Assembly (NCBI RefSeq): GCF_026914285.1
Contig: NZ_CP113864.1
Coordinates: 2,356,501 to 2,420,500, forward strand
Reading direction: 5' to 3'
From: Caldicellulosiruptor naganoensis
Lineage (GTDB): Bacteria > Bacillota > Thermoanaerobacteria > Caldicellulosiruptorales > Caldicellulosiruptoraceae
Length of the DNA: 64,000 nucleotides
Shown: positions 84 to 53,688 of the stretch, piece after piece
Numbering within the stretch: the stretch's first letter is position 1
Layout: every line of letters begins with the position of its first letter
Made by a program: the position numbers and the translations under genes
The notes under the pieces: model-generated
The model's input: only the letters and a program-made list of their open reading frames with translations
Told to the model about the DNA's origin: nothing
Database searches by the model: none

Positions 84-347
84 TCAAATTATAATAGAAT
101 CATAGTTCTTTTCTTGACCCAAAACTTTTTTATTGCACACAAGTTTATATTCCATCTCATAAAAATATACCGAATCTTCATCCTTTTCTATGACCGATAA
201 AAGCTCCCGTTTGCACTTTTCAAGCTTGCCAAGTGTGATTTCTCCTTCAAACACTGAATTTTGAACCCATGTGAAGTATTTTTTTAAAATCTTTCTTACC
301 TTGTTGACCCTCTTTTCATTTATGTCGTATGTGACTATAACAAAGAT
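84..347 (-). CDS. cas2: Cas2 adaptation nuclease-fold protein with a non-AUG (ATC) start
   Basis: This 87-codon frame encodes the small ferredoxin-fold partner of Cas1 in the spacer-integration complex. The start region reads IFVIVTYDINEKRVNKVRK, the classic Cas2 first strand with Asp in VTYD, followed by a W-x-Q-x-S-V-F-E-G segment also typical of Cas2. Length matches the family (about 85-95 aa). The frame has no ATG, GTG or TTG at its expected start. An in-frame TGA lies three codons upstream, and the first sense codon at the right distance from AGGAG (9 bases) is ATC at 347-345. The ATG and GTG just upstream are in another frame that ends after a few codons. Either ATC is used, or the start was mutated from ATG. 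It is the last gene of the cas operon. Confidence 0.85.
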   Translation of the reverse strand: MFVIVTYDINEKRVNKVRKILKKYFTWVQNSVFEGEITLGKLEKCKRELLSVIEKDEDSVYFYEMEYKLVCNKKVLGQEKNYDSIII

Positions 348-7447: not shown

Positions 7448-8236
7448 TTACTTTGCCACCTCAATAAAACCAAATCCTTGTCCACGCCTAAAGCCAAGAC
7501 CGTTTAGATAAATCTCTTTTAAATCATCTGGATGTCCTGATAGTTCAAATATACCAGAAAAACCTGTAAGATACATAATCTCTTTGCCAGTATTCTTCTT
7601 AAACTCTGAAATCTTGTGCTTTACTACAGTTTTTTTAATATTTATTGGTTTAAAACTAATTTTCTTATGAAGCCCCATATTTTGTCCGCGTAAAATTCTT
7701 ATATTTCTTATTTGGAAATCAATTACATCATTTAGAATCTCTTCAAACCCTTTATCATAAGGCAAAACGGGAACTTTGTCATCCCCCTCTTTTTTTTCAA
7801 TCAGTACTGGGGAAAATGTCTCAAAAGTCATGGTTGAAGAAAACTGCTCAGGTTCTCTGACAAGATACATTTTTTTGAGAGTTATTTCAAGACAACTATC
7901 AGAAAGTTTATGAGGATACAATTTGTGGTTAACAAGACTATTGTAGATATTTACAAAAAACTCATAATCTGAAGTCGAAATATTCAAAACTATATCGCCT
8001 TTGAACAGCACTTTATCGTTTAAAAAATTCATATTTGGTAAATTTACTGCAAAAACAAAAGGCTTCTGCCATTTATTCTTCTTATCCTCCCAACAGTAAA
8101 GCTTATTGAAATAATCTTCATTGTACAAAGATAATGCTTTCTTTAAAAAACCCATAAAAAGTGTTCTGTAATAAACAGGAAGTTCCTTGGTCTCCTGCTG
8201 GATATTGTGAACTTCAAAAATAAATTTTGCTCTCAT
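7448..8236 (-). CDS. cas6: Cas6 crRNA-processing endoribonuclease
   Basis: Cas6 cuts the long pre-crRNA inside each repeat. The 262-aa protein starts MRAKFIFEV, a RAMP first strand, and ends with the glycine-rich loop GLGFRRGQGFGFIEV that is diagnostic for Cas6. The frame also runs to a TTG at 8245, but that is only 3 bases from AAAGGAG, so the ATG at 8236 is preferred. No histidine is seen between residues 20 and 50, where many Cas6 proteins keep the catalytic one, so cleavage chemistry may depend on another residue. It is the first gene of the operon. Confidence 0.88.
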   Translation of the reverse strand: MRAKFIFEVHNIQQETKELPVYYRTLFMGFLKKALSLYNEDYFNKLYCWEDKKNKWQKPFVFAVNLPNMNFLNDKVLFKGDIVLNISTSDYEFFVNIYNSLVNHKLYPHKLSDSCLEITLKKMYLVREPEQFSSTMTFETFSPVLIEKKEGDDKVPVLPYDKGFEEILNDVIDFQIRNIRILRGQNMGLHKKISFKPINIKKTVVKHKISEFKKNTGKEIMYLTGFSGIFELSGHPDDLKEIYLNGLGFRRGQGFGFIEVAK

Positions 8237-8434
8237 CTCAAACAATCTCTCCTTTTTTAAGTAATTCTTACATCAATCTGCACTGATTATTATATTTCGA
8301 CATTAACTGTAAAAATCCTTCTTCTCAAAATAAATTTTTTACCCAATGCTGGAACTGTAAAAGGATTATTCACATTATTGATAGATAAGATAAAATGATG
8401 TTTATAAAGAGATTAAAGGAACTGCCTTAACAAA
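8237..8434 (-). promoter_or_regulatory. cas operon upstream region with a possible -10 box
   Basis: This AT-rich gap separates the array's left end from cas6. On the minus strand, TATAAT lies at 8294-8289, about 50-60 bases before the cas6 start, but the -35 region has no clear hexamer at the usual distance. Transcription of the cas genes could start here, or come through from the array, which reads in the same direction. Confidence 0.35.
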
Positions 8435-8729
8435 GCTTATATTCCTAATAGTTCAGATAAAACGAATACTTATGTAAGGCTTTGCCCAGAAGAACTTTGT
8501 GCTTACATCCCTAAATAGTTCAGATAAAACTGGACAGCAAGAATGAAATATGCACTGAAGAAAGTTGTTTACATCACTAATAGCTCAGATAAAACCTTTA
8601 CCATTAACAGTAACAACATCTGTTGCTGCCAGATTTATATCCCCCTAATGGTTCAGATAAAACTTGACCTTGCTGGCGACCTCACAGCTGGCATTGTGCG
8701 TTTTACATCCCTAATAGTTCAGATAAAAC
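8435..8729 (-). repeat. Degenerate trailer-end repeats of the CRISPR array
   Basis: The repeats at 8435-8463, 8501-8530, 8567-8595 and about 8633-8663 carry substitutions and single-base insertions, while the repeat at 8701-8729 differs only at its first base. From there on repeats are canonical. Degeneration is normally found at the oldest, leader-distal end, so this marks 8435 as the trailer and supports minus-strand transcription of the array. Confidence 0.9.
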
Positions 8730-11700
8730 TTTATTTTCTAATTCTTCATTGAGTTCTTTTATAATTGTTTACATCCCTAATAGTTCAGATAAAACTGAAA
8801 GCAAACCACAACTTATTAACGCTGAACAACTTAGTTTACATCCCTAATAGTTCAGATAAAACACAAGTTAGCAAAGAAGAACTTGCTGTATTTTGCGTGT
8901 TTACATCCCTAATAGTTCAGATAAAACATTATATCCTTTTGCATGTGCACCGATAGTATCAATGTTTACATCCCTAATAGTTCAGATAAAACAAGAAAAG
9001 AATGAGAAAATCTTACATTGAATACGTCTATGTTTACATCCCTAATAGTTCAGATAAAACTCGCCAGCCATTGCAAAGTCCACTCTTTTGCGCACGTGTT
9101 TACATCCCTAATAGTTCAGATAAAACCTTTTGACAAAAGAAGCGTGCTTCCTCTTCTAAGCGTTTACATCCCTAATAGTTCAGATAAAACCCAAGGTATC
9201 ATCTTCATGTCAAAACAGTTTGGTGTGTTTACATCCCTAATAGTTCAGATAAAACCTCTTAGAGCTACCAATTTTCCTACCGCAAGCTCAAACGTTTACA
9301 TCCCTAATAGTTCAGATAAAACAAGACAAGAAGGTACAAAAATAACAATCTTTGTTAAGTATTTACATCCCTAATAGTTCAGATAAAACAGTGTTCGCTG
9401 CAACGAATCCTGATAGTCCATATCACGTTTACATCCCTAATAGTTCAGATAAAACCGTTCACAGATGGCATTTACAAAAGGGCTGGGCTGGAATGTTTAC
9501 ATCCCTAATAGTTCAGATAAAACGATGAATAACGAATTGGGGCAACGGTGTTGCGCTGTTGTTTACATCCCTAATAGTTCAGATAAAACTTACACCTCAA
9601 AAAAACAAAGCACCCCAGCTCAGCGCGTTTACATCCCTAATAGTTCAGATAAAACGGTTTTCGCTGACTTCGATAAAAGCCAAGCACTGCTGTTTACATC
9701 CCTAATAGTTCAGATAAAACTACTCTGCAGCTTCTGCGTTTGCTCTGTTAACATCCTGTTTACATCCCTAATAGTTCAGATAAAACCCCATTTAGGGTTG
9801 GCAGTGTGGTTGCTGCCATGAAGTTTACATCCCTAATAGTTCAGATAAAACATGTTCGTCGGCACTTTTGGAACAGGAAAAACTCATCGTTTACATCCCT
9901 AATAGTTCAGATAAAACTACAAGCTGTAGCCCGTGCCTGTTGTAGCCTACCTTTGTTTACATCCCTAATAGTTCAGATAAAACATGAATGAGCGAGATAG
10001 AAGAAATCAAAGATGCAGCGTTTACATCCCTAATAGTTCAGATAAAACTCCAGTTGCACCCTGATACGCTGTCTTGTTCGCAGCGTTTACATCCCTAATA
10101 GTTCAGATAAAACTTTCATTTTACTGTAACAAGCACGCTTCAACACATTCAAGTTTACATCCCTAATAGTTCAGATAAAACTGATACAAACAACACTACC
10201 AGCTGATACAAAAATTAGACGTTTACATCCCTAATAGTTCAGATAAAACGCTTCTGAGGGTTATCACGATGATACCGTAATGGCCTGTTTACATCCCTAA
10301 TAGTTCAGATAAAACTTGAAAAACAGTTGCAAAGGGACAACGAGAAAGATAGTTTACATCCCTAATAGTTCAGATAAAACCCCAAAGGGAAGGCTACAAA
10401 GGGTAGGTGTGGAGTGTTTACATCCCTAATAGTTCAGATAAAACTTGCAGCATGTTCCCAAACTCCTTCTCTATCATCGTTGTTTACATCCCTAATAGTT
10501 CAGATAAAACGGTTTTTGTAACGACAAACCCAGATAGCCCTTACCACGTTTACATCCCTAATAGTTCAGATAAAACTACCAGTTGTTACAGCAAGCAAAA
10601 ATGGAATATAAATGTTTACATCCCTAATAGTTCAGATAAAACTTAGGCAAACCGTTCCCCAAACCGTTACCCAAACCGTTGTTTACATCCCTAATAGTTC
10701 AGATAAAACTCATACTTGTTCGCATCAAATAACACCAGCGGGGCACGTTTACATCCCTAATAGTTCAGATAAAACAAAGTAAGCTCAAAACTTTTCAATG
10801 GAGAGATAAGCGAGTTTACATCCCTAATAGTTCAGATAAAACCCAGAGTTTTAGAGTGCAAGTGATTTAGAACAATGCGTTTACATCCCTAATAGTTCAG
10901 ATAAAACTTTCCCAATCAAACTTCGCCACATCATCTCACCACCTGTTTACATCCCTAATAGTTCAGATAAAACCCCCCTTAAACGTTGAATTTTTGTTTA
11001 AATTCCTGCAGGTTTACATCCCTAATAGTTCAGATAAAACCAGGGGAAATCACAAAGACAAGCACCAGTTGACACGTTTACATCCCTAATAGTTCAGATA
11101 AAACCAAGCATACTTAAAACGTCAGCCAGTTTTTGTACCATGTTTACATCCCTAATAGTTCAGATAAAACATAGCTCAGGGGGTACCTGAGGGCTACCGA
11201 AATATGTGTTTACATCCCTAATAGTTCAGATAAAACTACAAGATAGACAAAAATAAAGACCAGCCCTATTGTTTACATCCCTAATAGTTCAGATAAAACT
11301 TCTATCATAGCCAGCAGTAGTAATTGCAATAATCAGGTTTACATCCCTAATAGTTCAGATAAAACCAAGTATCCGCTGCGTCAGTGTAAACTTGAAAGCT
11401 TACGTTTACATCCCTAATAGTTCAGATAAAACCTGAATAGTGCAGTTTACTCGCAATTAGCATAAATTTGTTTACATCCCTAATAGTTCAGATAAAACCT
11501 GGTCGTAACGCTGTAACCTCTCTAATTCACTGTCGTTTACATCCCTAATAGTTCAGATAAAACTTTCTTGAAAGAACCACCGATAACCAGCTTAAATCCG
11601 TGTCGTTTACATCCCTAATAGTTCAGATAAAACGGCTGGTTTGATGTGTAGCCTCTTTTTTACATACCAGGTTTACATCCCTAATAGTTCAGATAAAACT

Positions 11701-14700
11701 GTTGGCCAAATACGATACCCAAGGAAGTCAATTCCCGTTTACATCCCTAATAGTTCAGATAAAACAGTGAAAGGTTAGGCCATAGCAGTATTTCAATAAC
11801 GAGTTTACATCCCTAATAGTTCAGATAAAACGAGGTCTCCCTATCGGGAATTTGACTTCCCAGCTATGTTTACATCCCTAATAGTTCAGATAAAACGAAC
11901 GCTCAGGGGCAAAGCGACGGCAGCCCGGGCATGTTTACATCCCTAATAGTTCAGATAAAACGTATAATAGTAAGTGAAAAGAGCAGGAAAATAAAAAGTT
12001 TACATCCCTAATAGTTCAGATAAAACGGAATAGTCAGTACTGGGTTAAAGAGATGCAGGAATTGTTTACATCCCTAATAGTTCAGATAAAACTTTTTAGG
12101 ATAATAAGAGACCTAAAATCAAAAGGTGTTTGGTTTACATCCCTAATAGTTCAGATAAAACTGGGTACACCCAAATATACTGCCAAGGTTTGTAATAACT
12201 GTTTACATCCCTAATAGTTCAGATAAAACTTCCAATTGTGCTTTCAGCCTGTTCAATAATCTTTGGTTTACATCCCTAATAGTTCAGATAAAACTATAAT
12301 CCAGAGCGAACAAGGCAATATGAGCAATTAGTGTTTACATCCCTAATAGTTCAGATAAAACTGAAAAAACGGCAAAAAACGCTGAAAAAGCAAAAGAAGT
12401 TTACATCCCTAATAGTTCAGATAAAACTTTTTAAGCTTATCAATCAACTTTTCAATAATCTGAGTTTACATCCCTAATAGTTCAGATAAAACTGCGGATT
12501 ATAGCAACATTCAACACAGTTTAAATCGTTTACATCCCTAATAGTTCAGATAAAACGTGGTTTTAAACCTGCATAACGATATAAGCTTTCTGGGTTTACA
12601 TCCCTAATAGTTCAGATAAAACCCCCATTCTCGTTCAAAGTTCCGTCTGGTTCACGAATGTTTACATCCCTAATAGTTCAGATAAAACACTGAATGGTTT
12701 TACCGACAACAAATGAAACAGGTTTGTTTACATCCCTAATAGTTCAGATAAAACTACAAACTGTCGATGATAAATACGCTTCATGGCATTGGTTTACATC
12801 CCTAATAGTTCAGATAAAACAAAGAAGGAGGTATCAAAATGATTAAATGTACCTGGTTTACATCCCTAATAGTTCAGATAAAACTCCAAATAGCACAAAG
12901 CAGAAAGAAAAACCCAGAAAAAGTTTACATCCCTAATAGTTCAGATAAAACGGGCGTCGTGCCCCGCTTTTTTTGTTGCTGTTCTTGGTTTACATCCCTA
13001 ATAGTTCAGATAAAACTAAAGCTTGACGAAATGCTAAAAGCGGCAATGAAAGTTTACATCCCTAATAGTTCAGATAAAACTAGCAAAGAACGAAGGAAAA
13101 ACAGTCAAGTTTAGAAAGTTTACATCCCTAATAGTTCAGATAAAACTATATACCTATGCAATCTCTTTCTGCGCCCACCAATGTTTACATCCCTAATAGT
13201 TCAGATAAAACAATCAGACCAGAAGCCTTGGTAGTAATTACAGCTAACGTTTACATCCCTAATAGTTCAGATAAAACGTTTTCTCTACCCCTACATAAGC
13301 CAAGCGTCAATGCTGTTTACATCCCTAATAGTTCAGATAAAACTTATTAATTCATCAACTGTTTCTTCAAACCAACTATTTGTTTACATCCCTAATAGTT
13401 CAGATAAAACGCCTGCTGCCTGTCCAACTTGCCCAGCTTTCAAAACCGTTTACATCCCTAATAGTTCAGATAAAACTCAGCGTTATTATGATGACTTAAA
13501 CAACCTCATAAAAGGTTTACATCCCTAATAGTTCAGATAAAACTGATATAGAGCAAAGCTAATTTTTTTATAAGCGTTTTCGTTTACATCCCTAATAGTT
13601 CAGATAAAACAAGAATCGTAAAACAATGAATTACACTTTTTTCTCCGTTTACATCCCTAATAGTTCAGATAAAACAGGAGACGATACAGAACATGACCCA
13701 TATGCTGAAATGTTTACATCCCTAATAGTTCAGATAAAACTAGAGCACAAAAAAGATTACTTCAAACTTCAAGCAGCAAGTTTACATCCCTAATAGTTCA
13801 GATAAAACTAAAGAGTGTGAAATAAGTCCCAGGACTTTCTATTATGTTTACATCCCTAATAGTTCAGATAAAACAAGAAATTGATGAGCCTTTGTCAATC
13901 CTCAGGCACGTGTTTACATCCCTAATAGTTCAGATAAAACGCCAAGAATAAAGCGTTTATAAAACAAGCCTGTGTGTTTACATCCCTAATAGTTCAGATA
14001 AAACAATTTGAACCGCTTGCAAGTGAAAGTCACAGTCTCGAGTTTACATCCCTAATAGTTCAGATAAAACGTAGCTTGCTATGAGATAAGCTAAAATTGC
14101 AAAGACAAAGTTTACATCCCTAATAGTTCAGATAAAACTCGCTATGTTTAAGCTGAATGTAGTCTTTCCCATAGCGTTTACATCCCTAATAGTTCAGATA
14201 AAACAATCGCTTAATGTCTTTTTGAAATCTTTTAGTGATATGTTTACATCCCTAATAGTTCAGATAAAACCGCCCCGCCCACGCCAACTGGGTTTGCTGT
14301 ATACTGCGTTTACATCCCTAATAGTTCAGATAAAACCTTATAATGATTAACATTACCAGACGTTACGGGATTTGTTTACATCCCTAATAGTTCAGATAAA
14401 ACAGGGTTGGAAAAAGAGGAAAAATTTGAAGTAAGACAGGTTTACATCCCTAATAGTTCAGATAAAACACGATGTTTATTTCAATTTACATGACACAGGT
14501 TGGGCATGTTTACATCCCTAATAGTTCAGATAAAACTTGCGGACTCATAGGGATAGACGAGAAAACATTAATTGTTTACATCCCTAATAGTTCAGATAAA
14601 ACTTAACTTTGTCACAGACTCCCTGTTGTCAATGAAAATGTTTACATCCCTAATAGTTCAGATAAAACTAATATATGAGATAACCGAAGATGGAGGTTTA

Positions 14701-17700
14701 ACACGTTTACATCCCTAATAGTTCAGATAAAACCATACAACTTTAAAAACATTACAGCAGATGCGATTACAGTTTACATCCCTAATAGTTCAGATAAAAC
14801 GAAGGTGCAACGATACAGTTTTTCCTTGTTCGCATCAAGTTTACATCCCTAATAGTTCAGATAAAACTTACCTTTTTCATTCGACAGAATACGAATTCCG
14901 ACTGGGTTTACATCCCTGATAGTTCAGATAAAACGCAAATCAAAGTATCTAAATCTTTGAGAATAAGATAGTTTACATCCCTAATAGTTCAGATAAAACT
15001 ACAATCTGCTGTGTCGCAAAATTGATTAGCCCTTCAGTTTACATCCCTAATAGTTCAGATAAAACTATATATAGCAACAGGTTTTGCTGAGTTCGATATA
15101 GTTTACATCCCTAATAGTTCAGATAAAACTTGGAGCTCATGTATACGGTCATAATGCGTACAGTGTGTTTACATCCCTAATAGTTCAGATAAAACTTTAA
15201 ACGTTCATAAATGCCTCGTATTTTAACGAAAAAGTTTACATCCCTAATAGTTCAGATAAAACCTGTTCCCAATCGTCAGGTACCGGATTATCAAATTTCG
15301 TTTACATCCCTAATAGTTCAGATAAAACATATAGCCTTGCAGTCGATTCTTTCGGCGATAAGATGTTTACATCCCTAATAGTTCAGATAAAACAGCAGAT
15401 TAGGAGTGGAAAGCTGCAATTAATACCGTAGTTTACATCCCTAATAGTTCAGATAAAACCCAGCCATATGTTTTCTTTTTGGACCAATGTGAGCCGTGTT
15501 TACATCCCTAATAGTTCAGATAAAACTATATATTGCCTTTCTGCCCCTGCAACAAAAATACAGTGTTTACATCCCTAATAGTTCAGATAAAACTAATCTA
15601 TGAATGCTAAAAACTCTTTTTCTCGAAATTCGTTTACATCCCTAATAGTTCAGATAAAACTTTGTGAAAAATTAAGTGTTGACAAAAGAATCTATGGTTT
15701 ACATCCCTAATAGTTCAGATAAAACTAGAAGCGCATAAAAGCCTTTAGAAGAGCAAAAAAGAAGGTTTACATCCCTAATAGTTCAGATAAAACGTTTGTA
15801 GAGGCGACGCAGGACGAGGTTTTATTTGGGTTTACATCCCTAATAGTTCAGATAAAACTAATAATTACTATCACTGATACAAAAAAGTAAAAGAAGTTTA
15901 CATCCCTAATAGTTCAGATAAAACTATAAACCACCAGAAAAAAATGTTTTAGAGGTTAGCCGTTTACATCCCTAATAGTTCAGATAAAACTATGACCTGC
16001 CGTATGCGATTGTACAGCATGAACGTGTTTACATCCCTAATAGTTCAGATAAAACCATTGTCTTTTGTCATTGCAACAATACCTGCTTGAAAGTTTACAT
16101 CCCTAATAGTTCAGATAAAACTTCAGGAAGCAGTTTTGAAAGCGTTGAAACTATCTTTGTTTACATCCCTAATAGTTCAGATAAAACAAGATTGCGATAT
16201 ACGTAATAACGAGTGACACACACGTTTACATCCCTAATAGTTCAGATAAAACCAAAGCCGATGAGTTAGCGACCATTATAGTTGAAGAGGTTTACATCCC
16301 TAATAGTTCAGATAAAACATACGATTGCGGTCCAAGTGGGCAGCTAATTTTGCTTGGTTTACATCCCTAATAGTTCAGATAAAACGTTTTGGATTTTCCA
16401 CTTGCTTTTTTCTACAAACCAAGGTTTACATCCCTAATAGTTCAGATAAAACTGAACTATATAAAACAACTCAACGCCTTCTGTGATTGGTGTTTACATC
16501 CCTAATAGTTCAGATAAAACGTATATGGACAACTATAAGTGTAGGTGGGTTAAATATAGTTTACATCCCTAATAGTTCAGATAAAACTGGCGTATATTCC
16601 CATTCAACGTCCTGCCAATAAAAATGTTTACATCCCTAATAGTTCAGATAAAACATTATCTACCCAAATTTGAACTTTATTCGAATCTAAGTTTACATCC
16701 CTAATAGTTCAGATAAAACTCCTCAGGGGCACAAGTTAGTGTACTTTTCAGCAATGTTTACATCCCTAATAGTTCAGATAAAACCAGACGCTGCAGACCA
16801 GTATATTGCAAGTTTGTATGTGTTTACATCCCTAATAGTTCAGATAAAACCATTTGAAGAAAACAAGGGGTTGTATGAGCAGTATATGTTTACATCCCTA
16901 ATAGTTCAGATAAAACAAGGTCTTTCATAAGCAATGCATTGCAGTTTACTGTGTTTACATCCCTAATAGTTCAGATAAAACTCATTCTTCATTACCTGCC
17001 TGTGTAAAATTCTGTGTGTTTACATCCCTAATAGTTCAGATAAAACCTGCTTGTGGCGTGCAGGATATAAGTCAGAACTGTCGTTTACATCCCTAATAGT
17101 TCAGATAAAACAACCTCTATATAGTTAGCAATTTGCCCCCAGCGAACGTTTACATCCCTAATAGTTCAGATAAAACGAAATTGACTGTGGTCCGAGCGGA
17201 GAAATAGTTTTGCGTTTACATCCCTAATAGTTCAGATAAAACGTCAAAGAGTTAAACAGGTTGGTAAGACAAAGGATTTGTTTACATCCCTAATAGTTCA
17301 GATAAAACTCGGAGTTGGACGGCCAGCTGGCCGTCTGGTCAGGTTTCACGTTTACATCCCTAATAGTTCAGATAAAACTAGGCGAATTCAGTAAGAACTA
17401 TATACTCTTTAACAACGTTTACATCCCTAATAGTTCAGATAAAACAAGGTTTTCTCAAACCCTATAAAAGCCAAGCACTGCTGTTTACATCCCTAATAGT
17501 TCAGATAAAACATGGTACTAGCAAAGTTAAAAATCATAAAGTAGTAAGTTTACATCCCTAATAGTTCAGATAAAACAGATAATGCAGAAAACGAAAGGAG
17601 ACCAGCGAGCATTGTTTACATCCCTAATAGTTCAGATAAAACAAGCTTACAGGCTTAGGGCTATGGATAAAGGACATGGGTTTACATCCCTAATAGTTCA

Positions 17701-20700
17701 GATAAAACAAAGGAACTTGTTGTACGAAAAAGTTACATGACTATAGTTTACATCCCTAATAGTTCAGATAAAACGTAACACAGAAATATACTACCAGGGC
17801 GGTGTGTTCCGTTTACATCCCTAATAGTTCAGATAAAACCCGGCACTAAACCGGTGAAACCTGACCAGACGGCCCACGTTTACATCCCTAATAGTTCAGA
17901 TAAAACATACAAATCTCCAATTCGTATACGATATGCTGCGAACGTTTACATCCCTAATAGTTCAGATAAAACCAACGTTTGGCAGTTCTGCATTGCTAAA
18001 CACAACAACGTTTACATCCCTAATAGTTCAGATAAAACAAAAGAAACACATGCTACTTATCATGAGGTATTTTAGGTTTACATCCCTAATAGTTCAGATA
18101 AAACCTTGTCCAAATTCTTCATTTTTGAAATCCAACACCTTGTTTACATCCCTAATAGTTCAGATAAAACTTGTTCCTTGCCTGCCAAAACATTAGATAT
18201 CGGATTTGTTTACATCCCTAATAGTTCAGATAAAACCAGCTATTTTGCGTTTGACCGCTTCCTTGTCTTTTTCGTTTACATCCCTAATAGTTCAGATAAA
18301 ACTCAAGAACACTTAAAAATGTTTTGAACTAAAAATAATGTTTACATCCCTAATAGTTCAGATAAAACTCAGGTACTCGACAATGCTCAGTTCGCAAACG
18401 CTAAGTTTACATCCCTAATAGTTCAGATAAAACCAAGAATAATGAAACTTAAGAACACAGAGATAATAACGTTTACATCCCTAATAGTTCAGATAAAACA
18501 CTTGCCCGTTTACAGCAAACGGCTCGTTTAACCTCGTTTACATCCCTAATAGTTCAGATAAAACCTTTTTTGTCTCTTTTGGGTGCTTCTATGCTTTCAA
18601 AGTTTACATCCCTAATAGTTCAGATAAAACTCTTTGTGTCTTTTAATTGAATATGACCGGGTGCTAAGTTTACATCCCTAATAGTTCAGATAAAACCAAC
18701 ACACACCCGGCAACATAGTGGCCGAGTGATGTAAGTTTACATCCCTAATAGTTCAGATAAAACTACGGAGGTAGCGAACGGCAGGAACACAAAGGCGAGT
18801 TTACATCCCTAATAGTTCAGATAAAACAAAAATTAATAGAAATAGGTGCAATATTTTACTCAGCGTTTACATCCCTAATAGTTCAGATAAAACAATGCAA
18901 CAATTTAAATGCGTTTTATGTACACAAATATGTTTACATCCCTAATAGTTCAGATAAAACTAGGGCAAAATAGATTGTTTCAATGGCTAAGAGATAAGTT
19001 TACATCCCTAATAGTTCAGATAAAACCAAAGACTGCAAAGATTTTGTAGCGACACTAATGTTGTTTACATCCCTAATAGTTCAGATAAAACTCACGCAGG
19101 AGTTAGGTAGACAATACGAACAGGTTATAGTTTACATCCCTAATAGTTCAGATAAAACTGATGACAGAAGGAATAACTGCAGGTACAATTCAAACGTTTA
19201 CATCCCTAATAGTTCAGATAAAACCAGAGTCACAGTATACATTTTTCTTACAGCTTCTTGGTTTACATCCCTAATAGTTCAGATAAAACCTGTAACAGGG
19301 CTCACAGACCTGTATGCGGTAAGAATGTTTACATCCCTAATAGTTCAGATAAAACCTTCAAGCTACTATCAGCTATCATCTGCAAAAAAGCGTTTACATC
19401 CCTAATAGTTCAGATAAAACCAAGACGACGGTTGTATATATTTCATGAAATATATCGTTTACATCCCTAATAGTTCAGATAAAACCATTGCAAATAAAGC
19501 AATTAAGGCAGCTTTAGTAAAAAGTTTACATCCCTAATAGTTCAGATAAAACAATGAAAAGACATCATTGTTTAACATAGATTTAAGCAGTTTACATCCC
19601 TAATAGTTCAGATAAAACCAGACAACGTTAAAGACGTACAGGCTCATATCATAGCTGTTTACATCCCTAATAGTTCAGATAAAACTGCATACAAACTTAC
19701 GCTGACAGCGAGCGGTTAATCGCGTTTACATCCCTAATAGTTCAGATAAAACTTTCCTCAACCATTTGATACTCACCTCCTTACAAGAGTTTACATCCCT
19801 AATAGTTCAGATAAAACTGTTTTAATCTTTCTTCGATGTATTGTTTAATTGTGTTTACATCCCTAATAGTTCAGATAAAACTCTTTTGTTAGTTTAATAC
19901 TTAGTTTAATACATCCCAGTTTACATCCCTAATAGTTCAGATAAAACTTTCAAGCTTAAACATATTAAATCACCTCATTATTAGGTTTACATCCCTAATA
20001 GTTCAGATAAAACCCCTCGATAACCCCGTCATGAGTTGAAGCGTTTGATGTTTACATCCCTAATAGTTCAGATAAAACTTCTGTAATGAAAGATTCTCAA
20101 AAGTTTGCTCAGAAGTTTACATCCCTAATAGTTCAGATAAAACGAATACAGCTAATATCCTCATCCTCGAAATGATATGTCGTTTACATCCCTAATAGTT
20201 CAGATAAAACTCATTGGTGCAGACAACGTTTTAGCACCCATAATCACGTTTACATCCCTAATAGTTCAGATAAAACATTTTGTTGTACAAGATACAACAA
20301 CAACGTTACCTCTGTTTACATCCCTAATAGTTCAGATAAAACAATATTTTTGCCTGTTTGGCTCAGTGCGATATTAGTTGTTTACATCCCTAATAGTTCA
20401 GATAAAACTAGAATTTACACGGAAAATATTTTCAGCTAAAGAAATGTTTACATCCCTAATAGTTCAGATAAAACAAGAAACAAAACACTTGAATTGATTC
20501 CTGATGAGAAGTTTACATCCCTAATAGTTCAGATAAAACATGGATAAAATTGAAATTGCTAATAATCTGCAATTAGGGTTTACATCCCTAATAGTTCAGA
20601 TAAAACTTTGAGTGGTGCAGCTGCAGCAGAAATAATTCTTGCGTTTACATCCCTAATAGTTCAGATAAAACTCGTCAACTTCTTCATACCAGATAAATTT

Positions 20701-20938
20701 GACATAACCAGTTTACATCCCTAATAGTTCAGATAAAACTAACATCATAATAACGCTTAACTATCAAATCACAAAATTGTTTACATCCCTAATAGTTCAG
20801 ATAAAACTTGGATGTATTGAGGAGGCGTTGTATTTCTATTGCAGTTTACATCCCTAATAGTTCAGATAAAACTAGGTACACCCGTTGGTGGATTCAACGA
20901 AACATCCGAGTTTACATCCCTAATAGTTCAGATAAAAC
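8435..20938 (-). CRISPR. Type I-B CRISPR array, about 190 repeats
   Basis: A continuous array of 29-bp repeats with spacers of mostly 36-38 bases (range seen 35-41). I counted 190 repeats by hand, which agrees with 12.5 kb divided by a 66-bp unit. In the inferred crRNA orientation (minus strand) the repeat begins GTTTTATCTGAACTATTAGG and ends GATGTAAAC, resembling other clostridial I-B repeats that begin GTTTT and end AAAC. Nearly all internal repeats are identical; one at about 14908-14936 has CTGAT for CTAAT. The left four or five repeats are degenerate. A promoter lies beyond the right end. The short reading frames visible across the array are repeat artefacts. Confidence 0.99.
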
Positions 20939-21130
20939 CCACATTTTTAAAAAAACTCATAAACCAGCTACTGTCTATAATTATACCCTTTTGTAATTCG
21001 ATATGCAACTAATTTTATTTGCAGCAAAGGTCAAGTTGGGTTTTGGATGTAAATGACAAATTAGCTTCTTTTGCAGGATTGACAAAATATTTACCTTCAG
21101 CATTTATTTTTAGGTTCGCTGCAAAATAAC
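20939..21130 (-). promoter_or_regulatory. CRISPR leader with promoter
   Basis: The leader adjoins the last (youngest) repeat at 20938. On the minus strand it carries TTGCAT at 21008-21003 and TATAAT at 20985-20980, separated by exactly 17 bases. Predicted transcription would start about 35-40 bases before the first repeat. Further upstream are AT-rich sequences, a TTTGCAGCGAA motif and an ATTTACATCC segment (about 21054-21045) that matches 9-10 bases of the repeat in inverted orientation. The leader boundary at 21130 is arbitrary. Confidence 0.75.
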
Positions 21131-21483: not shown

Positions 21484-21873
21484 GTGATAAACATAGTTAT
21501 ATCGCAGACATCTAACCAGCCAATATATGAGCAGATAAAAAATCAGATAAAACAGGAAATTTTAAGAGGAAACCTAAAAAAAGGTGATAGTCTTCCGTCA
21601 ATCAGAGTTTTGGCAAAAGAGCTGAATGTAAGTGTTATCACAACAAAAAGAGCGTACGAAGAGCTTGAAAAAGAGGGTTTTATAATTACCGTTCCTGCAA
21701 GAGGCACATTTGTTGCTGATATTGACAAAGAAAAACTTTCTCTTTTCGGTCTTCAAGAAATTGAAAATGATTTAAAACATATTGTCAAGAAGGCAAAAAT
21801 TTTTGGAGTTGATCTTAAAAATCTTTTAGAAATAATTGAAAGACTGTACAGAAGAGAGGAAGATAAAGTATGA
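21484..21873 (+). CDS. YtrA-subfamily GntR transcriptional repressor
   Basis: This 129-aa protein has an N-terminal winged helix (QPIYEQIKNQIKQEILRG, then the recognition region SIRVLAKELNVSVITTKRAY) and only a short helical C-terminal tail. That small size without a ligand-binding domain defines the YtrA subfamily, whose members usually repress a linked ABC transporter operon. The GTG start at 21484 is 10 bases after AAAGGAG. Its stop overlaps the next gene's ATG by 4 bases. The palindrome over its own promoter is the likely binding site. The inducing signal is unknown; cell-envelope stress or peptide antibiotics are known cues for relatives. Confidence 0.88.
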   Translation: MINIVISQTSNQPIYEQIKNQIKQEILRGNLKKGDSLPSIRVLAKELNVSVITTKRAYEELEKEGFIITVPARGTFVADIDKEKLSLFGLQEIENDLKHIVKKAKIFGVDLKNLLEIIERLYRREEDKV

Positions 21874-22748
21874 TTGCTCTGATGGTTAAAAACCTTACAA
21901 AATCGTATAAAAACTTTCGTCTTGAAATACCAGAACTTACCTTAGAAAGCGGCTATATCATGGGACTTCTGGGAAAAAACGGTGCCGGAAAAACCACTTT
22001 GATAAAGTGTATACTTGACCTTGCAAAAAAGGAAAGTGGAGAGGTTTTCATATTCGAAAAGCCTTTTAATTGTGATGAAATTGAGATAAAACAAAGGCTT
22101 GGAGTTGTATTAGAAACTCCAATTTTGCCGGGTCAGTTAAAACCGAAAGATGTAAAAGAGATAATGAAGTCATTTTACAAAAATTGGGATGATAGGCTTT
22201 ACAACAAGCTCTGTGACCTTTTTGAAATTGACCAGAACAAAAAGATAATTCATCTCTCAAAAGGAACTGTGATGAAACTGTCTATCGCTCTAGCTCTATC
22301 TATAAGACCTGACTTTTTGATTTTAGATGAACCAACATCTGGGCTTGACCCTGTTGCAAGGAATCAGTTTGTTGAGATTCTGCAGAGTTTTGTCCAGTCT
22401 GAAGAAAAGGCTGTCTTCTACTCAACTCATATAGTCTCTGATATTGAGAATGTTGCAGACTTTGTGACAATCATAGATAATGGCAAAATCATCTTTTCAT
22501 CATCGCATGAAAGCATTGAAGAGGATTATTGTATAGTAAAAGGACCTGCTTCAGAGAGTAACAAAATCCCACAAAGTATAGTTTTATCTTGTAAAAAAGG
22601 TTCATTTTCGTTTGAAGCTCTTTGCAAAAAGAATGAAATTGAAAAGTTTATTGAGCCAGGCTTTGTTGTTGAAAAACCATCAATTGAAAAGTTCTATGTA
22701 ATGCTTGTGAGAAGGGATGAAAAGGATGAAGTTTTGGAAACTCTATAG
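21870..22748 (+). CDS. ABC transporter ATP-binding protein (YtrB-like)
   Basis: This 292-aa ATPase has Walker A GLLGKNGAGKTTLIK (about 30-45), a signature region HLSKGTVMKLSIALAL, Walker B FLILDEPTSGLDP and the switch His in STHIVSDIE. The signature is LSKGT instead of LSGGQ, common among ABC-2 exporter ATPases. It overlaps the repressor gene by 4 bases and the next permease by about 20-30, so it is the first effector of a regulated operon. Substrate is unknown. Confidence 0.9.
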   Translation: MIALMVKNLTKSYKNFRLEIPELTLESGYIMGLLGKNGAGKTTLIKCILDLAKKESGEVFIFEKPFNCDEIEIKQRLGVVLETPILPGQLKPKDVKEIMKSFYKNWDDRLYNKLCDLFEIDQNKKIIHLSKGTVMKLSIALALSIRPDFLILDEPTSGLDPVARNQFVEILQSFVQSEEKAVFYSTHIVSDIENVADFVTIIDNGKIIFSSSHESIEEDYCIVKGPASESNKIPQSIVLSCKKGSFSFEALCKKNEIEKFIEPGFVVEKPSIEKFYVMLVRRDEKDEVLETL

Positions 22749-28086: not shown

Positions 28087-29790
28087 TCATTTGCTAATAC
28101 CAATAAATTCTAAGCCTTCCTCATATGTCATGAAGTTTTTTGGACCCTTTATCTTCATTACATTCAGTATATCTCCAGCTTCTCCCTCAATTTTTTGCTT
28201 TATCAAATATTTCTTCCCTTTTATCTCTATTTCAAAAAAGTTCATTGAATATATTGCTTCCATTATCCTTTCACTACTTATTCCTTTACCTTTTCTCCTC
28301 AAAATATATTCCAATGTCCTTTGCAGTAAAAATGCCAAAAAACATATCACAAAATGTCCTTTTATTCTGCTTTCTGTAAAGTGATATATCGGTCGCACTT
28401 CTAAACAGCTTTTCATTACTCTGAATGACTGTTCTATCTTCCATAAATCGTGATATGCTCCTAAAACCTCTTCTACATCCATATCCTTTTTGCTCGTTTG
28501 AATTGCATAATAACCGTCAAATTTCTCATCTCGTTTTATCGCTTCCTCATCCAATACATATTCTTCTGATTTTGATTTCTTCTTCAAATATTTCCTTGCA
28601 CCTTTCTTTTCTAAGGCTGTTATGCTTCCTTTGTTCTCTAAAAGCTCTTTGGCTTTTCTTACCAATCTCTCTCTGTCTTCTTTGTCTTTCTTGGCTCTCT
28701 TGCTTGAATACGTTATTATCAAATTCTCTTCTATTTTGAACTCTTTACCCTCTTCATCCTTGACAATATTTGTTCTTTCCAATACCTTATATTTGAATTC
28801 ATCACCATAAATTTCTTCAGCATTCAAACATCTTTTGCCATCAAGTCTTTTATATCCTTCTTCATTAAAAACTTCATCTAAAATTTCTTTACTTGCATTC
28901 TTTAATCTGCTTGCTACTATATAGTCGTACCCAGCTTCTTTTATCATCTTTAAATTTATTCTGCTGTTAAGCCCTTTGTCTGCTACTATTATTATCTTAT
29001 CTATACTAAATTTTTCCTTCAGCTTCCTCAGTATCTTTACCATCGTCTTGCTATCTATCGTATTACCAGGAAAAAGTTCATACCCTATCGGTCTGCCTTC
29101 TTTGTCCACCAAAAGCCCTAATACAACTTGCACTTCATTTACCTTGTTGTCTTTGCTAAACCCAAAATTTTTAAGTTCATCCGCTCTACAACTCTCAAAG
29201 TATATTGTCGTCACATCATAAAACACTACATCAACTACCATCTTAAATAAGTCTTTATTTCTCTGATACAGGTATGTCTCTAAATCTTCTTTTACACTGT
29301 CAAGAAAATCTAAACACCTGTACAATTGATTCAAATCTATATCCTCTTCAAATCCAAAATATTTGCTTCTCTGATGATAAGTTCTTAGTTTGCTCATTGG
29401 CTCTATCAATCTCTGTATGGTCATTAAAAAACTTACTTTGTCTACATCAAATTTTATCTTTCTCTCTTTTGCTGCTTTCCCTTTTAAAAACTTATCAATT
29501 TCAAGCTCCTGCCATAACTTTCTGTATACAATGTATCCCCAGTTTTTTACAACTGCATCCGAAATATCTTCTTCAGATTCAATAGTAACAGCTTTTGCAT
29601 TCTCAGTAGTTGTTTCAGCGACAATATCAGATAGTTTTTTTACAATGTTTTTAAAAGCGGGGTCATCTTTGAGAATATCAAGTCTACCAAAGTTAAATAG
29701 TACTCTTTGCTTTACTTTACCATTTTCACGGTAATTTTCGACTAACCTAACATACTGATAACCGCCAGCATTAGTAATTTTGACAAACAT
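28087..29790 (-). CDS. IS1634-family DDE transposase (copy A)
   Basis: The product, about 567 aa from the ATG at 29790 (MFVKITNAGGYQYVRLVENY), matches the IS1634 family of IS4-like transposases. The catalytic triad is visible as D in FYDVTTIYFES, D in IVADKGLNSR and E in KIEQSFRVMK, with the family landmark YELFPGNTIDSKT between. The frame is open to 29829, but 29790 fits the family N-terminus. It differs from copy B at three clustered bases near the C-terminal end (28156, 28181, 28193). The reading frame is intact, so the element may still be active. Confidence 0.93.
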   Translation of the reverse strand: MFVKITNAGGYQYVRLVENYRENGKVKQRVLFNFGRLDILKDDPAFKNIVKKLSDIVAETTTENAKAVTIESEEDISDAVVKNWGYIVYRKLWQELEIDKFLKGKAAKERKIKFDVDKVSFLMTIQRLIEPMSKLRTYHQRSKYFGFEEDIDLNQLYRCLDFLDSVKEDLETYLYQRNKDLFKMVVDVVFYDVTTIYFESCRADELKNFGFSKDNKVNEVQVVLGLLVDKEGRPIGYELFPGNTIDSKTMVKILRKLKEKFSIDKIIIVADKGLNSRINLKMIKEAGYDYIVASRLKNASKEILDEVFNEEGYKRLDGKRCLNAEEIYGDEFKYKVLERTNIVKDEEGKEFKIEENLIITYSSKRAKKDKEDRERLVRKAKELLENKGSITALEKKGARKYLKKKSKSEEYVLDEEAIKRDEKFDGYYAIQTSKKDMDVEEVLGAYHDLWKIEQSFRVMKSCLEVRPIYHFTESRIKGHFVICFLAFLLQRTLEYILRRKGKGISSERIMEAIYSMNFFEIEIKGKKYLIKQKIEGEAGDILNVMKIKGPKNFMTYEEGLEFIGISK

Positions 29791-30201
29791 ATGGCAACTC
29801 CTTGAAGATAGTTTGTTATATTGTACCACAAAATATTTAAAAAGTCAAGCAAATTCAGTATATATTAAGCTAAAATTTGTCCCTACATTTTTTAAAATTT
29901 TTTATTTTTCTCTTCTTGAAACCCGCATAAATTAAGACTTTGTTATTTTTTGTTAGCTCAAAAACACCTCTTAACTGACAAAGTCAAGAATTTTGACAAA
30001 CATATGGCAACTCCTTGAAGATAGTTTGTTATATTGTACCACAAAATATTTAAAAAGTCAAGCAAATTCAGTATATATTAAGCTAAAATTTGTCCCTACA
30101 TTTTTTAAAATTTTTTATTTTTCTCTTCTTGAAACCCGCATAAATTAAGACTTTGTTATTTTTTGTTAGCTCAAAAACACCTCTTAACTGACAAAGTCAA
30201 G
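29776..30201. repeat. Tandem 213-bp duplication of the IS right end
   Basis: Bases 29776-29988 are repeated directly at 29989-30201. The unit begins just inside the transposase gene (including its start codon) and ends with the terminal inverted repeat. Copy B has only one such unit. The second unit therefore gives copy A two right ends in the same orientation and two copies of the transposase promoter region. Confidence 0.93.
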
Positions 30202-30264: not shown

Positions 30265-31782
30265 TTACGCTGAGAATTTTGTTGCAAGTCGCATGATTTC
30301 TTCTTCTGTTGCATCCTTTCGATCCAAGATACCAGAAACTCTACCTTCGCACATGACAAGGATTCTGTCAGACATTCCTAAAAGTTCTGGCATCTCAGAA
30401 GAAATCATGATAATGCTCTTTCCCTCTGTTGCAAGCTGGTTTATGAGATTGTAAATCTCATACTTTGCTCCAACGTCAATTCCCCTTGTTGGTTCATCTA
30501 AAAGAAGAATTTCTGGTTCTGTCAAAAGCCAACGTGCAATCAATACTTTTTGCTGGTTTCCACCAGAAAGATTCTTTATCTGTGTTTTATATGAAGGAGT
30601 TTTTATTTTCAAAACCTTAATAAAGTTTTCTGTGTCAATCACTCTTCTTTTGTCATTCAAAAGTCTAAAACCATTTAGATATTTCCTGAGACTTGCTAAT
30701 GTTGTATTTTCTAATATGTTAAGTTCTGGAATAATTCCTGTGAGTTTTCTATCCTCTGTTAAAAGCGCAATCTTGTTTTTAATTGCATCCTGTGGACTTT
30801 TTATAGTCACTTCTTTTCCTTTTATATATATCTTGCCCTCCTTGATACTTCTTAGCCCAAATATAGCCTCAACCAGCTCTGTCCTCTGAGATCCAACAAG
30901 ACCACCAATTCCTAAAATTTCGCCTTTTCGAAGTTCAAATGAAACATTCTTAAACGACCTTGGATGAATAGATGTCAAATTCTCAACTCTTAAAATGACC
31001 TCTGAGGGCTTATTTGTCTTTTGTGGGAACCTGTCTGACATCTGACGCCCAACCATGTTTGCAATCATCATATCAGGTGTGAGCTCAGATATATTCCATG
31101 AACCAACCACTTTACCATCACGCATGATTGTCACTTCGTCTGCTATCTCAAATATTTCTTCAAGCTTGTGAGAGATATATATGATTGAAACACCTTTTGA
31201 TTTTAGGTCTCTTATTATCCTAAAAAGGTGCTCAACTTCATTTTCTGTCAAAGACGATGTTGGCTCATCCATCACAATAACTTTTGAGTTGTAAGATACA
31301 GCCTTTGCAATCTCAATAAGCTGAATTTTGGAAACAGAAAGCTGGCCGACAATCGCTCTTGGGTCAACATCTATCTCAAGCTTTTGCAAAAGTGCTTTTG
31401 TATCTTCGTACATTTTCCTGTGGTCAACAAACTTAAAAGGCCCCGCATTTATGTGAGGAAATCTCCCAAGCCATATATTCTCCATCACACTTCTCTGAGG
31501 GACCGGCTGAAGTTCTTGGTGGATCATTGAAATACCAAGTCTTATAGCGTCAATCGGACTTTGGATGTTAACATGCTGACCATCTAATATGATCTCACCA
31601 CTGTCAGGCTTGTAAATTCCAAATAGACACTTCATTAAGGTGGACTTTCCCGCACCGTTTTCGCCCAAAAGTGCATGGACAGTTCCTTTTTTTACCTTTA
31701 CTGTGACATTGTCAAGTGCTTTAACACCTGGAAATTCCTTTGTAATGTTATTCATCTCTAAAATATACTCTGGTCTTCCCAT
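30265..31782 (-). CDS. mglA: Sugar ABC transporter ATP-binding protein, MglA/RbsA type
   Basis: The 505-aa protein carries two ABC domains in tandem, the architecture of monosaccharide-import ATPases of the RbsA/MglA group. The first has Walker A LLGENGAGKST (about 37-47) and Walker B VIVMDEPTSSL; the second has a degenerate Walker A, GGLVGSQRTE, but a good signature LSGGNQQKVLIARWL and Walker B LLLDEPTRGID. A one-sided degenerate site is normal for this family. It lies between mglB (about 115 bases upstream) and the IS that splits off mglC. Confidence 0.93.
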   Translation of the reverse strand: MGRPEYILEMNNITKEFPGVKALDNVTVKVKKGTVHALLGENGAGKSTLMKCLFGIYKPDSGEIILDGQHVNIQSPIDAIRLGISMIHQELQPVPQRSVMENIWLGRFPHINAGPFKFVDHRKMYEDTKALLQKLEIDVDPRAIVGQLSVSKIQLIEIAKAVSYNSKVIVMDEPTSSLTENEVEHLFRIIRDLKSKGVSIIYISHKLEEIFEIADEVTIMRDGKVVGSWNISELTPDMMIANMVGRQMSDRFPQKTNKPSEVILRVENLTSIHPRSFKNVSFELRKGEILGIGGLVGSQRTELVEAIFGLRSIKEGKIYIKGKEVTIKSPQDAIKNKIALLTEDRKLTGIIPELNILENTTLASLRKYLNGFRLLNDKRRVIDTENFIKVLKIKTPSYKTQIKNLSGGNQQKVLIARWLLTEPEILLLDEPTRGIDVGAKYEIYNLINQLATEGKSIIMISSEMPELLGMSDRILVMCEGRVSGILDRKDATEEEIMRLATKFSA

Positions 31783-51706: not shown

Positions 51707-53688
51707 CTTGACTTTGTCAGTTTGAAGCTCAAAAAGCTTGGGAGGACTGGGATTGACAAAATATGGACCTCAATTTTGTCACTACATCATTTGCTAATAC
51801 CAATAAATTCTAAGCCTTCCTCATATGTCATGAAGTTTTTTGGACCCTTTATCTTTATTACATTCAGTATATCTCCAGCTCCTCCCTCAATTCTTTGCTT
51901 TATCAAATATTTCTTCCCTTTTATCTCTATTTCAAAAAAGTTCATTGAATATATTGCTTCCATTATCCTTTCACTACTTATTCCTTTACCTTTTCTCCTC
52001 AAAATATATTCCAATGTCCTTTGCAGTAAAAATGCCAAAAAACATATCACAAAATGTCCTTTTATTCTGCTTTCTGTAAAGTGATATATCGGTCGCACTT
52101 CTAAACAGCTTTTCATTACTCTGAATGACTGTTCTATCTTCCATAAATCGTGATATGCTCCTAAAACCTCTTCTACATCCATATCCTTTTTGCTCGTTTG
52201 AATTGCATAATAACCGTCAAATTTCTCATCTCGTTTTATCGCTTCCTCATCCAATACATATTCTTCTGATTTTGATTTCTTCTTCAAATATTTCCTTGCA
52301 CCTTTCTTTTCTAAGGCTGTTATGCTTCCTTTGTTCTCTAAAAGCTCTTTGGCTTTTCTTACCAATCTCTCTCTGTCTTCTTTGTCTTTCTTGGCTCTCT
52401 TGCTTGAATACGTTATTATCAAATTCTCTTCTATTTTGAACTCTTTACCCTCTTCATCCTTGACAATATTTGTTCTTTCCAATACCTTATATTTGAATTC
52501 ATCACCATAAATTTCTTCAGCATTCAAACATCTTTTGCCATCAAGTCTTTTATATCCTTCTTCATTAAAAACTTCATCTAAAATTTCTTTACTTGCATTC
52601 TTTAATCTGCTTGCTACTATATAGTCGTACCCAGCTTCTTTTATCATCTTTAAATTTATTCTGCTGTTAAGCCCTTTGTCTGCTACTATTATTATCTTAT
52701 CTATACTAAATTTTTCCTTCAGCTTCCTCAGTATCTTTACCATCGTCTTGCTATCTATCGTATTACCAGGAAAAAGTTCATACCCTATCGGTCTGCCTTC
52801 TTTGTCCACCAAAAGCCCTAATACAACTTGCACTTCATTTACCTTGTTGTCTTTGCTAAACCCAAAATTTTTAAGTTCATCCGCTCTACAACTCTCAAAG
52901 TATATTGTCGTCACATCATAAAACACTACATCAACTACCATCTTAAATAAGTCTTTATTTCTCTGATACAGGTATGTCTCTAAATCTTCTTTTACACTGT
53001 CAAGAAAATCTAAACACCTGTACAATTGATTCAAATCTATATCCTCTTCAAATCCAAAATATTTGCTTCTCTGATGATAAGTTCTTAGTTTGCTCATTGG
53101 CTCTATCAATCTCTGTATGGTCATTAAAAAACTTACTTTGTCTACATCAAATTTTATCTTTCTCTCTTTTGCTGCTTTCCCTTTTAAAAACTTATCAATT
53201 TCAAGCTCCTGCCATAACTTTCTGTATACAATGTATCCCCAGTTTTTTACAACTGCATCCGAAATATCTTCTTCAGATTCAATAGTAACAGCTTTTGCAT
53301 TCTCAGTAGTTGTTTCAGCGACAATATCAGATAGTTTTTTTACAATGTTTTTAAAAGCGGGGTCATCTTTGAGAATATCAAGTCTACCAAAGTTAAATAG
53401 TACTCTTTGCTTTACTTTACCATTTTCACGGTAATTTTCGACTAACCTAACATACTGATAACCGCCAGCATTAGTAATTTTGACAAACATATGGCAACTC
53501 CTTGAAGATAGTTTGTTATATTGTACCACAAAATATTTAAAAAGTCAAGCAAATTCAGTATATATTAAGCTAAAATTTGTCCCTACATTTTTTAAAATTT
53601 TTTATTTTTCTCTTCTTGAAACCCGCATAAATTAAGACTTTGTTATTTTTTGTTAGCTCAAAAACACCTCTTAACTGACAAAGTCAAG
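51707..53688 (-). mobile_element. IS1634-family insertion sequence, copy B
   Basis: A complete 1982-bp element with perfect 16-bp inverted repeats (CTTGACTTTGTCAGTT and its complement) and one intact transposase gene. It interrupts an older IS256-like transposase. By eye it matches copy A except at 51856, 51881 and 51893, so the two are recent copies. Confidence 0.94.
51787..53490 (-). CDS. IS1634-family DDE transposase (copy B)
   Basis: About 567 aa from the ATG at 53490, identical to the copy A transposase except for three residues in the C-terminal region (K to R, E to G and M to I, around IEGEAGDILNVMK). The D, D and E catalytic motifs (FYDVTT, IVADKG, KIEQSF) are intact. It lies within its own inverted repeats, with the usual 5' region that is duplicated only at copy A. 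Confidence 0.93.
   Translation of the reverse strand: MFVKITNAGGYQYVRLVENYRENGKVKQRVLFNFGRLDILKDDPAFKNIVKKLSDIVAETTTENAKAVTIESEEDISDAVVKNWGYIVYRKLWQELEIDKFLKGKAAKERKIKFDVDKVSFLMTIQRLIEPMSKLRTYHQRSKYFGFEEDIDLNQLYRCLDFLDSVKEDLETYLYQRNKDLFKMVVDVVFYDVTTIYFESCRADELKNFGFSKDNKVNEVQVVLGLLVDKEGRPIGYELFPGNTIDSKTMVKILRKLKEKFSIDKIIIVADKGLNSRINLKMIKEAGYDYIVASRLKNASKEILDEVFNEEGYKRLDGKRCLNAEEIYGDEFKYKVLERTNIVKDEEGKEFKIEENLIITYSSKRAKKDKEDRERLVRKAKELLENKGSITALEKKGARKYLKKKSKSEEYVLDEEAIKRDEKFDGYYAIQTSKKDMDVEEVLGAYHDLWKIEQSFRVMKSCLEVRPIYHFTESRIKGHFVICFLAFLLQRTLEYILRRKGKGISSERIMEAIYSMNFFEIEIKGKKYLIKQRIEGGAGDILNVIKIKGPKNFMTYEEGLEFIGISK

What the first reader, a model, noticed from the sequence alone, without database searches (positions are those of the whole stretch)
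8435..20938. Exceptionally long CRISPR array of about 190 repeats
A single uninterrupted array of about 12.5 kb with near-identical 29-bp repeats and about 189 spacers was counted directly. Most arrays are an order of magnitude shorter. Near-identity of repeats over that distance indicates continual adaptation and little loss, and it is a large record of mobile elements met by this lineage.
Basis: seen in the sequence. Interest (0 to 1): 0.75.

Follow-up and report, generated by a model that had tools for sequence, protein, structure and literature searches.

The report
Long, ordinary type I-B CRISPR array
The bacterium, a Caldicellulosiruptor heat-lover, really does keep 189 virus fragments in one CRISPR memory bank, but its close relatives have banks just as long, so the length is normal for this group; the more unusual thing is that its cas2 gene, needed to add memories, has no standard start codon.

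Summary
Window 8435-20938 is one uninterrupted CRISPR array of 190 repeats and 189 unique spacers; 183 repeats are identical, and a decayed 191st lies at 8368-8396. It belongs to the intact type I-B cas operon on its left (cas6-8b1-7-5-3-4-1-2) and is read leftwards from a leader at 20939-21100.

The genome is a Caldicellulosiruptor. All 11 congeners searched carry the same repeat in 47-290 copies, one in a single 249-repeat array, so 190 is ordinary for this genus. Thirty-nine spacers match prophages or virus contigs of the genus (controls 0-2), with a 5'-CCN PAM, so it is a real phage record. 'Little loss' is not supported: no ancestral spacer block is shared with any congener, and the array that abuts cas2 in 10 of 11 congeners is gone here, leaving part of its leader.

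By-products: a self-targeting spacer with the wrong PAM; a spacer copied from another CRISPR array; phages carrying solitary copies of this repeat (Racr-like). Most notable, cas2 across the genus has ATC/ATA/ATT where sister genera have ATG, testable as a brake on adaptation.

The parts
8435..20938 (-). CRISPR array: 190 repeats of 29 bp and 189 spacers (written on + as GTTTACATCCCTAATAGTTCAGATAAAAC; the transcribed strand gives GTTTTATCTGAACTATTAGGGATGTAAAC)
   Evidence: orientation from degenerate end, leader and PAM
8368..8663 (-). trailer end: four degenerate repeats (8435, 8502, 8567, 8635) plus one decayed repeat remnant at 8368-8396, the oldest end
20939..21100 (-). leader, with TATAAT at 20980-20985 on the minus strand, 47 nt from the first repeat, and a conserved GCTGCAAA motif; conserved in congeners
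7448..8245 (-). cas6
   Evidence: TIGR01877
5828..7432 (-). cas8b1/cst1, type I-B large subunit
   Evidence: TIGR01908, PF09706
4867..5835 (-). cas7/cst2/devR
   Evidence: TIGR02585
4179..4880 (-). cas5b
   Evidence: TIGR01895
1988..4171 (-). cas3 with HD nuclease and helicase
   Evidence: TIGR01587, TIGR01596
1426..1941 (-). cas4
   Evidence: TIGR00372, PF01930
440..1438 (-). cas1b
   Evidence: TIGR03641 full length
84..347 (-). cas2; first codon is ATC, no ATG/GTG/TTG in frame before codon 32; preceded by AAAGGAG
   Evidence: TIGR01573
1..83 (-). part of the leader-distal region that in congeners links cas2 to another array; here the promoter-proximal part and that array are missing (breakpoint about 100 bp left of the window)
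12093..12132 (-). spacer 56, self-targeting
   Evidence: 39 of 40 nt identical to window 31187-31226; flank ATT instead of CCN
31187..31226 (+). chromosomal target of spacer 56, inside a sugar ABC-transporter ATPase gene (30265-31782, minus strand)
10381..10415 (-). spacer 30: 20 of its 35 nt are the repeat of the genome's other CRISPR family (GGGAAGG variant), so it was taken from a CRISPR array
13809..13845 (-). spacer 82: same target, 4 mismatches, as a spacer present twice in the genome's other CRISPR family

Best explanation
This is the array of an intact type I-B (Cst1/Cst2 variant) CRISPR-Cas system of a Caldicellulosiruptor. New spacers enter at the right-hand leader, next to 20938. 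The precursor RNA starts from a TATAAT promoter in that leader and runs leftwards through all 189 spacers. Cas6 cuts it in each repeat. Cas5-Cas7-Cas8b1 with one guide RNA binds phage DNA that carries a 5'-CCN PAM, and Cas3 degrades it. Cas4-Cas1-Cas2 insert new spacers. Shown here: anatomy, gene content, polarity, promoter conservation, PAM, phage origin of about one fifth of the spacers, and genus-wide presence of equally long arrays. Inferred from established type I-B biology: RNA processing, interference and spacer insertion. The length is a genus trait, and the array is the survivor of a locus that has also lost an array.
For: Count and uniqueness. Complete cas6-8b1-7-5-3-4-1-2 operon with subtype-specific models. 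Polarity: degenerate repeats at the left end; conserved right flank with TATAAT 46-48 nt from the first repeat in nine leaders including the window's. PAM: 14 of 14 non-self protospacers with at most 3 mismatches are preceded by CCN. Phage targets: 22 spacers at E<1e-5 in prophage loci against 0 in reversed or shuffled controls; 39 of 189 after adding 56 virus contigs, against 0-2 in controls. Targets carry tail sheath, tape measure, portal and minor head genes. Mismatches fall toward the leader (Spearman -0.35, p 0.03), as expected if the leader end is younger. Genus-wide long arrays. G009 has exactly the 2,970,275 bp of C. saccharolyticus.
Against: No expression, interference or adaptation data. 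The cas2 gene has no canonical start codon, so adaptation may be weak or off at present. 150 of 189 spacers have no known target. Named phage and plasmid collections gave no credible match, presumably because phages of this genus are not in them.
Confidence: 0.95

Rival explanations
1. The array is an archive: expression and interference work, but it no longer grows, because Cas2 is made poorly or not at all from an ATC codon.
For: No in-frame ATG/GTG/TTG before codon 32 of cas2. The related G005 has a truncated cas2. Only one spacer within the last ten (186) has a clear virus match.
Against: Cas2 is 90-100% conserved across nearly every species that has the codon, so it is under selection and probably made. 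Recent spacers, such as 177, match sequenced prophages exactly.
Confidence: 0.12
2. The array length is an assembly artefact (expanded or collapsed repeats).
For: Long repeat arrays are known trouble spots, and no reads were available.
Against: All 189 spacers differ from one another. The genome is one contig. Congeners with separate assemblies have arrays of similar length.
Confidence: 0.03
3. The array is exceptional because this lineage has unusually high acquisition or unusually low loss.
For: It is the fourth largest repeat total in 12 genomes and is unbroken, whereas several congeners' arrays are split.
Against: Congeners reach 249 in one array. No shared old spacers remain. The cas2-side array was lost.
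Confidence: 0.07

Closest known systems
Type I-B CRISPR-Cas of other Caldicellulosiruptor species (CRISPRCasdb, PMC7145573)
   Same: Same repeat (one or two bases apart), same leader, same cas4-1-2 (82-100%) and cas6 (71-88%), arrays of tens to hundreds of repeats.
   Different: Here the only array lies on the cas6 side; 10 of 11 congeners have one abutting cas2. Effector genes cas3/5/7/8b of congeners are only 23-59% identical to those in the window.
Type I-B system of Clostridioides difficile
   Same: Subtype I-B and 5' CCA/CCT PAM preference (PMC6079278).
   Different: Different repeat; C. difficile spreads spacers over many shorter arrays (general knowledge).
Haliangium ochraceum array of 587 spacers
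   Same: Very long single bacterial array.
   Different: Three times longer; unrelated host.
RNA anti-CRISPRs / solitary repeat units (PMC10651486)
   Same: Phage contigs of this genus carry single copies of this I-B repeat, as solitary repeat units do.
   Different: These are in the phages, not in the window; expression and inhibition untested.
Genes held down by a non-standard start codon: infC, and sigR of Streptomyces (PMC5472188)
   Same: Conserved non-ATG/GTG/TTG first codon behind a good ribosome-binding site.
   Different: cas2 is a CRISPR adaptation gene; no regulation by IF3 has been shown.

Membership tests
Type I-B CRISPR-Cas | Cas8b signature subunit with Cas7, Cas5, Cas3 | tested here: met
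   TIGR01908, TIGR02585, TIGR01895, TIGR01587/TIGR01596 above cut-off
Type I-B CRISPR-Cas | Adaptation module Cas1b-Cas2-Cas4 and processing enzyme Cas6 | tested here: met
   cas2 start codon non-standard
Type I-B CRISPR-Cas | Array of near-identical repeats (28-30 bp) with unique spacers and a leader | tested here: met
Type I-B CRISPR-Cas | Spacers match mobile elements with a consistent 5' PAM | tested here: met
   CCN in 14 of 14 non-self matches with at most 3 mismatches; 39 spacers matched
Type I-B CRISPR-Cas | Guide RNA processing by Cas6 and DNA interference | not testable with these tools
   needs RNA and plasmid assays
Exceptionally long array | Length well beyond that of related genomes | tested here: not met
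   47-290 copies in 11 congeners; one array of 249
Racr / solitary repeat unit (phage side finding) | Single intergenic repeat in a virus matching the host's subtype | tested here: met
   L109, L153, L160, L200 carry single copies; L154 carries one solitary copy plus a separate 2-3-repeat mini-array; intergenic position inspected for L109 only
Racr / solitary repeat unit (phage side finding) | Expressed RNA that blocks the effector complex | not testable with these tools
   no RNA data

The most novel reading that the evidence does not exclude
Spacer acquisition in Caldicellulosiruptor is throttled at translation: cas2 of this locus starts at AUC, AUA or AUU behind a strong ribosome-binding site, so Cas2 output depends on initiation-factor (IF3) stringency, as for infC. 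Arrays of hundreds of spacers are then built under a brake on adaptation rather than by unrestrained acquisition.
Probability: 0.4. Interest if true: 0.62.

Novelty: new member of a known kind. Interest (0 to 1): 0.33.

Why it matters
The array itself adds one well-resolved I-B memory of 189 spacers with a deduced CCN PAM, useful for genome editing with the native system in a lignocellulose-degrading thermophile and for assigning hot-spring viruses to this host. The surroundings matter more. If a whole genus starts cas2 at AUH codons, the rate of immune-memory formation may be set at translation, which a simple start-codon swap could test. Phages of the same genus that carry lone copies of this repeat are candidate RNA anti-CRISPRs for a thermophilic I-B system.

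Tried and rejected
Spacers against 50,697 phage records and 72,556 plasmids: only weak chance-level hits (E 0.5-0.6) in phages and none in plasmids. Two scans of genome contigs for organism names found nothing usable; the genus was identified instead from the exact length of G009. The second CRISPR family's repeat was not found in viral contigs, so the source of spacer 30 stays open. Spacers of the L154 mini-array had no target among the fetched loci. Rfam found nothing in the window. The standard promoter scan missed the leader promoter because its -35 box is weak; it was found by comparing leaders. A frameshift or upstream start for cas2 was considered: the upstream ATG and GTG frames are not conserved, and most loci have a TGA or TAG within one to three codons. 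Three loci (L126, L128, L129) do have an in-frame TTG or GTG 2-3 codons upstream, which weakens the claim for those species.

Full report
WHAT IS THERE. Counting by Hamming distance to GTTTACATCCCTAATAGTTCAGATAAAAC gives 190 repeats and 189 spacers, 183 repeats perfect, spacers 34-41 nt, no exact duplicate spacer. Four repeats at the left end are degenerate, and a decayed 191st sits in register at 8368-8396. It has 9 mismatches, and no place in 43 kb of non-array window is closer than 11. The repeat is found nowhere else in the single-contig genome of 2,494,610 bp.

WHOSE IT IS. Left of the array, on the minus strand, lies a complete operon: cas6, cas8b1/cst1, cas7/cst2, cas5, cas3, cas4, cas1, cas2. 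The subtype-specific models make it type I-B. The genome has a second CRISPR family (repeat GTTTCAATCCCCAAAGGGNAGGCTACAAAC, about 150 copies) and a second cas1. One congener, G009, has a contig of exactly 2,970,275 bp, the published size of the Caldicellulosiruptor saccharolyticus chromosome (PMC4510573), so the window comes from a Caldicellulosiruptor. The species was not determined.

POLARITY. The degenerate end is next to cas6, and the right flank is the leader. Across congeners the flank keeps a TATAAT on the minus strand 46-48 nt before the first repeat (nine leaders, the window's included) and a GCTGCAAA motif further out. Internal array pieces in G002 and G007 lack the TATAAT. Transcription therefore runs leftwards, with the repeat read as GTTTTATCTGAACTATTAGGGATGTAAAC.

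WHAT IT TARGETS. Named phage and plasmid records gave nothing credible. Genomes of the genus did: two prophages, in G006 and G010, and several smaller loci hold protospacers. In these loci 22 spacers match at E<1e-5, against none for reversed or shuffled spacers. Prophage proteins then led to 56 virus loci. Together, 39 of 189 spacers have a protospacer, against 0-2 in controls. The targets carry portal, minor head, tail sheath and tape-measure genes. The base triplet before the protospacer is CCN in 14 of 14 non-self matches with at most 3 mismatches, like C. difficile I-B (PMC6079278). Mismatches become fewer toward the leader (rho -0.35, p 0.03), which fits younger spacers there; this is a weak trend.

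IS THE LENGTH EXCEPTIONAL? Against bacteria in general it is long: typical arrays have fewer than 50 spacers and the record is 587 (PMC8047081, PMC7145573). Against its genus it is not. All 12 genomes carry the repeat, with 47-290 copies; this one is fourth by total, and G002 has one array of 249 repeats. PMC7145573 already singles out this genus for many, some very long, CRISPRs.

IS THERE LITTLE LOSS? No. Comparison with 1,261 spacers of nine congeners found only scattered single matches (spacers 168 and 187 exact over nearly full length), no ordered shared block and nothing conserved at the old end. In 10 of 11 congeners an array and its leader abut cas2. Here and in G005 that array is missing, and here about 180 bp of the leader-distal sequence remain beside cas2, cut off before the promoter. 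G001 has arrays on both sides (37 and 54 repeats). The identical repeats reflect how new repeats are copied from the leader-end one (established knowledge), not low loss.

ODD SPACERS. Spacer 56 matches the cell's own sugar-transport ATPase gene (31187-31226) over 39 of 40 nt. The flank in guide orientation is ATT, not CCN, and a CC lies on the opposite side one base off. That looks like an insertion in the wrong orientation, which would make it harmless (inference). Spacer 30 contains 20 nt of the other family's repeat (GGGAAGG variant), so it was taken from a CRISPR array, in a cell or on a virus. Spacer 82 and a twice-present spacer of the other family target the same site with 4 differences: two systems in one cell learnt from the same kind of element.

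PHAGES THAT CARRY THE REPEAT. A scan of IMG/VR for the repeat core found five contigs. Four related phages have the same solitary copy, CTTTATATCCCTTATAGTTCAGATAAAAC, at the same site. A different phage has CTTTACATCCCTCATAGTTCAGATAAAAC. One of the four (L154) also has a two- to three-repeat mini-array at its contig end. Reversed-repeat controls gave none. Several of these phages are targeted by window spacers 170 and 172. They fit the description of solitary repeat units, some of which act as RNA anti-CRISPRs (PMC10651486). Function here is untested.

CAS2 WITHOUT A NORMAL START. In the window, the Cas2 frame (87-347) opens with ATC, two codons after an in-frame TGA, behind AAAGGAG; the first in-frame ATG/GTG/TTG is codon 32. 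In 13 Cas2 loci of this type (12 Caldicellulosiruptor genomes plus G036) the codon is ATC (4), ATA (7) or ATT (2), never ATG. In the 17 closest loci outside the genus it is always ATG. The other Cas2 of the same genome has TTG. Three of the 13 have an in-frame TTG or GTG 2-3 codons upstream that could serve. The simplest reading is initiation at an AUH codon, known for infC (general knowledge) and analogous to the GTC start of sigR, which is repressed by IF3 (PMC5472188). Regulation is a hypothesis. A search of the paper library found no mention of it for cas2, which is not proof of novelty.

MODULES. Compared with the window, congeners' cas4-1-2 and cas6 are 71-100% identical, while cas3/5/7/8b are only 23-59%. 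The effector cassette has been exchanged while repeat, leader and adaptation genes stayed.

VERDICT. A true, long, well-formed type I-B array, ordinary for its genus, with a useful phage record. The interest lies in the by-products, above all the cas2 start codon.

Noticed in passing
window 84-347 (minus strand): cas2 starts at ATC with no canonical start before codon 32; ATC/ATA/ATT at this codon in 13 of 13 loci of the genus-type Cas2, ATG in 17 of 17 loci outside the genus.
   Followed up: partly
L109:4338-4366, L153:5872, L154:8525, L160:3775, L200:2326 (minus): IMG/VR phage contigs of this genus carry solitary copies of the host I-B repeat, possible RNA anti-CRISPRs.
   Followed up: partly
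L154:10605-10751: A virus contig ends in a mini-array of two full and one cut I-B repeats with two spacers that match nothing fetched.
   Followed up: partly
window 10381-10415: Spacer 30 includes 20 nt of another CRISPR family's repeat, so it was captured from a CRISPR array.
   Followed up: partly
window 12093-12132 and 31187-31226: Self-targeting spacer against a sugar ABC-transporter ATPase gene, with a non-CCN flank; looks flipped and slipped by one base.
   Followed up: yes
window 13809-13845 and G000:C1:12627-12661, 13893-13927: The two CRISPR families of one genome hold near-identical spacers against the same target; in the second family the spacer and its neighbours occur twice.
   Followed up: partly
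cas operons of G000-G011: Effector genes (cas3/5/7/8b) are swapped among congeners, 23-59% identity to the window, while cas4-1-2, cas6, leader and repeat stay conserved.
   Followed up: partly
window 28087-29829 and 51787-53529: Two frames of the same length (580 aa) with the same nested frames on the minus strand; the first is a DDE transposase.
   Followed up: no
window 21484-22748: GntR-type regulator and ABC ATPase resembling PmtR/PmtA lie just right of the leader.
   Followed up: no
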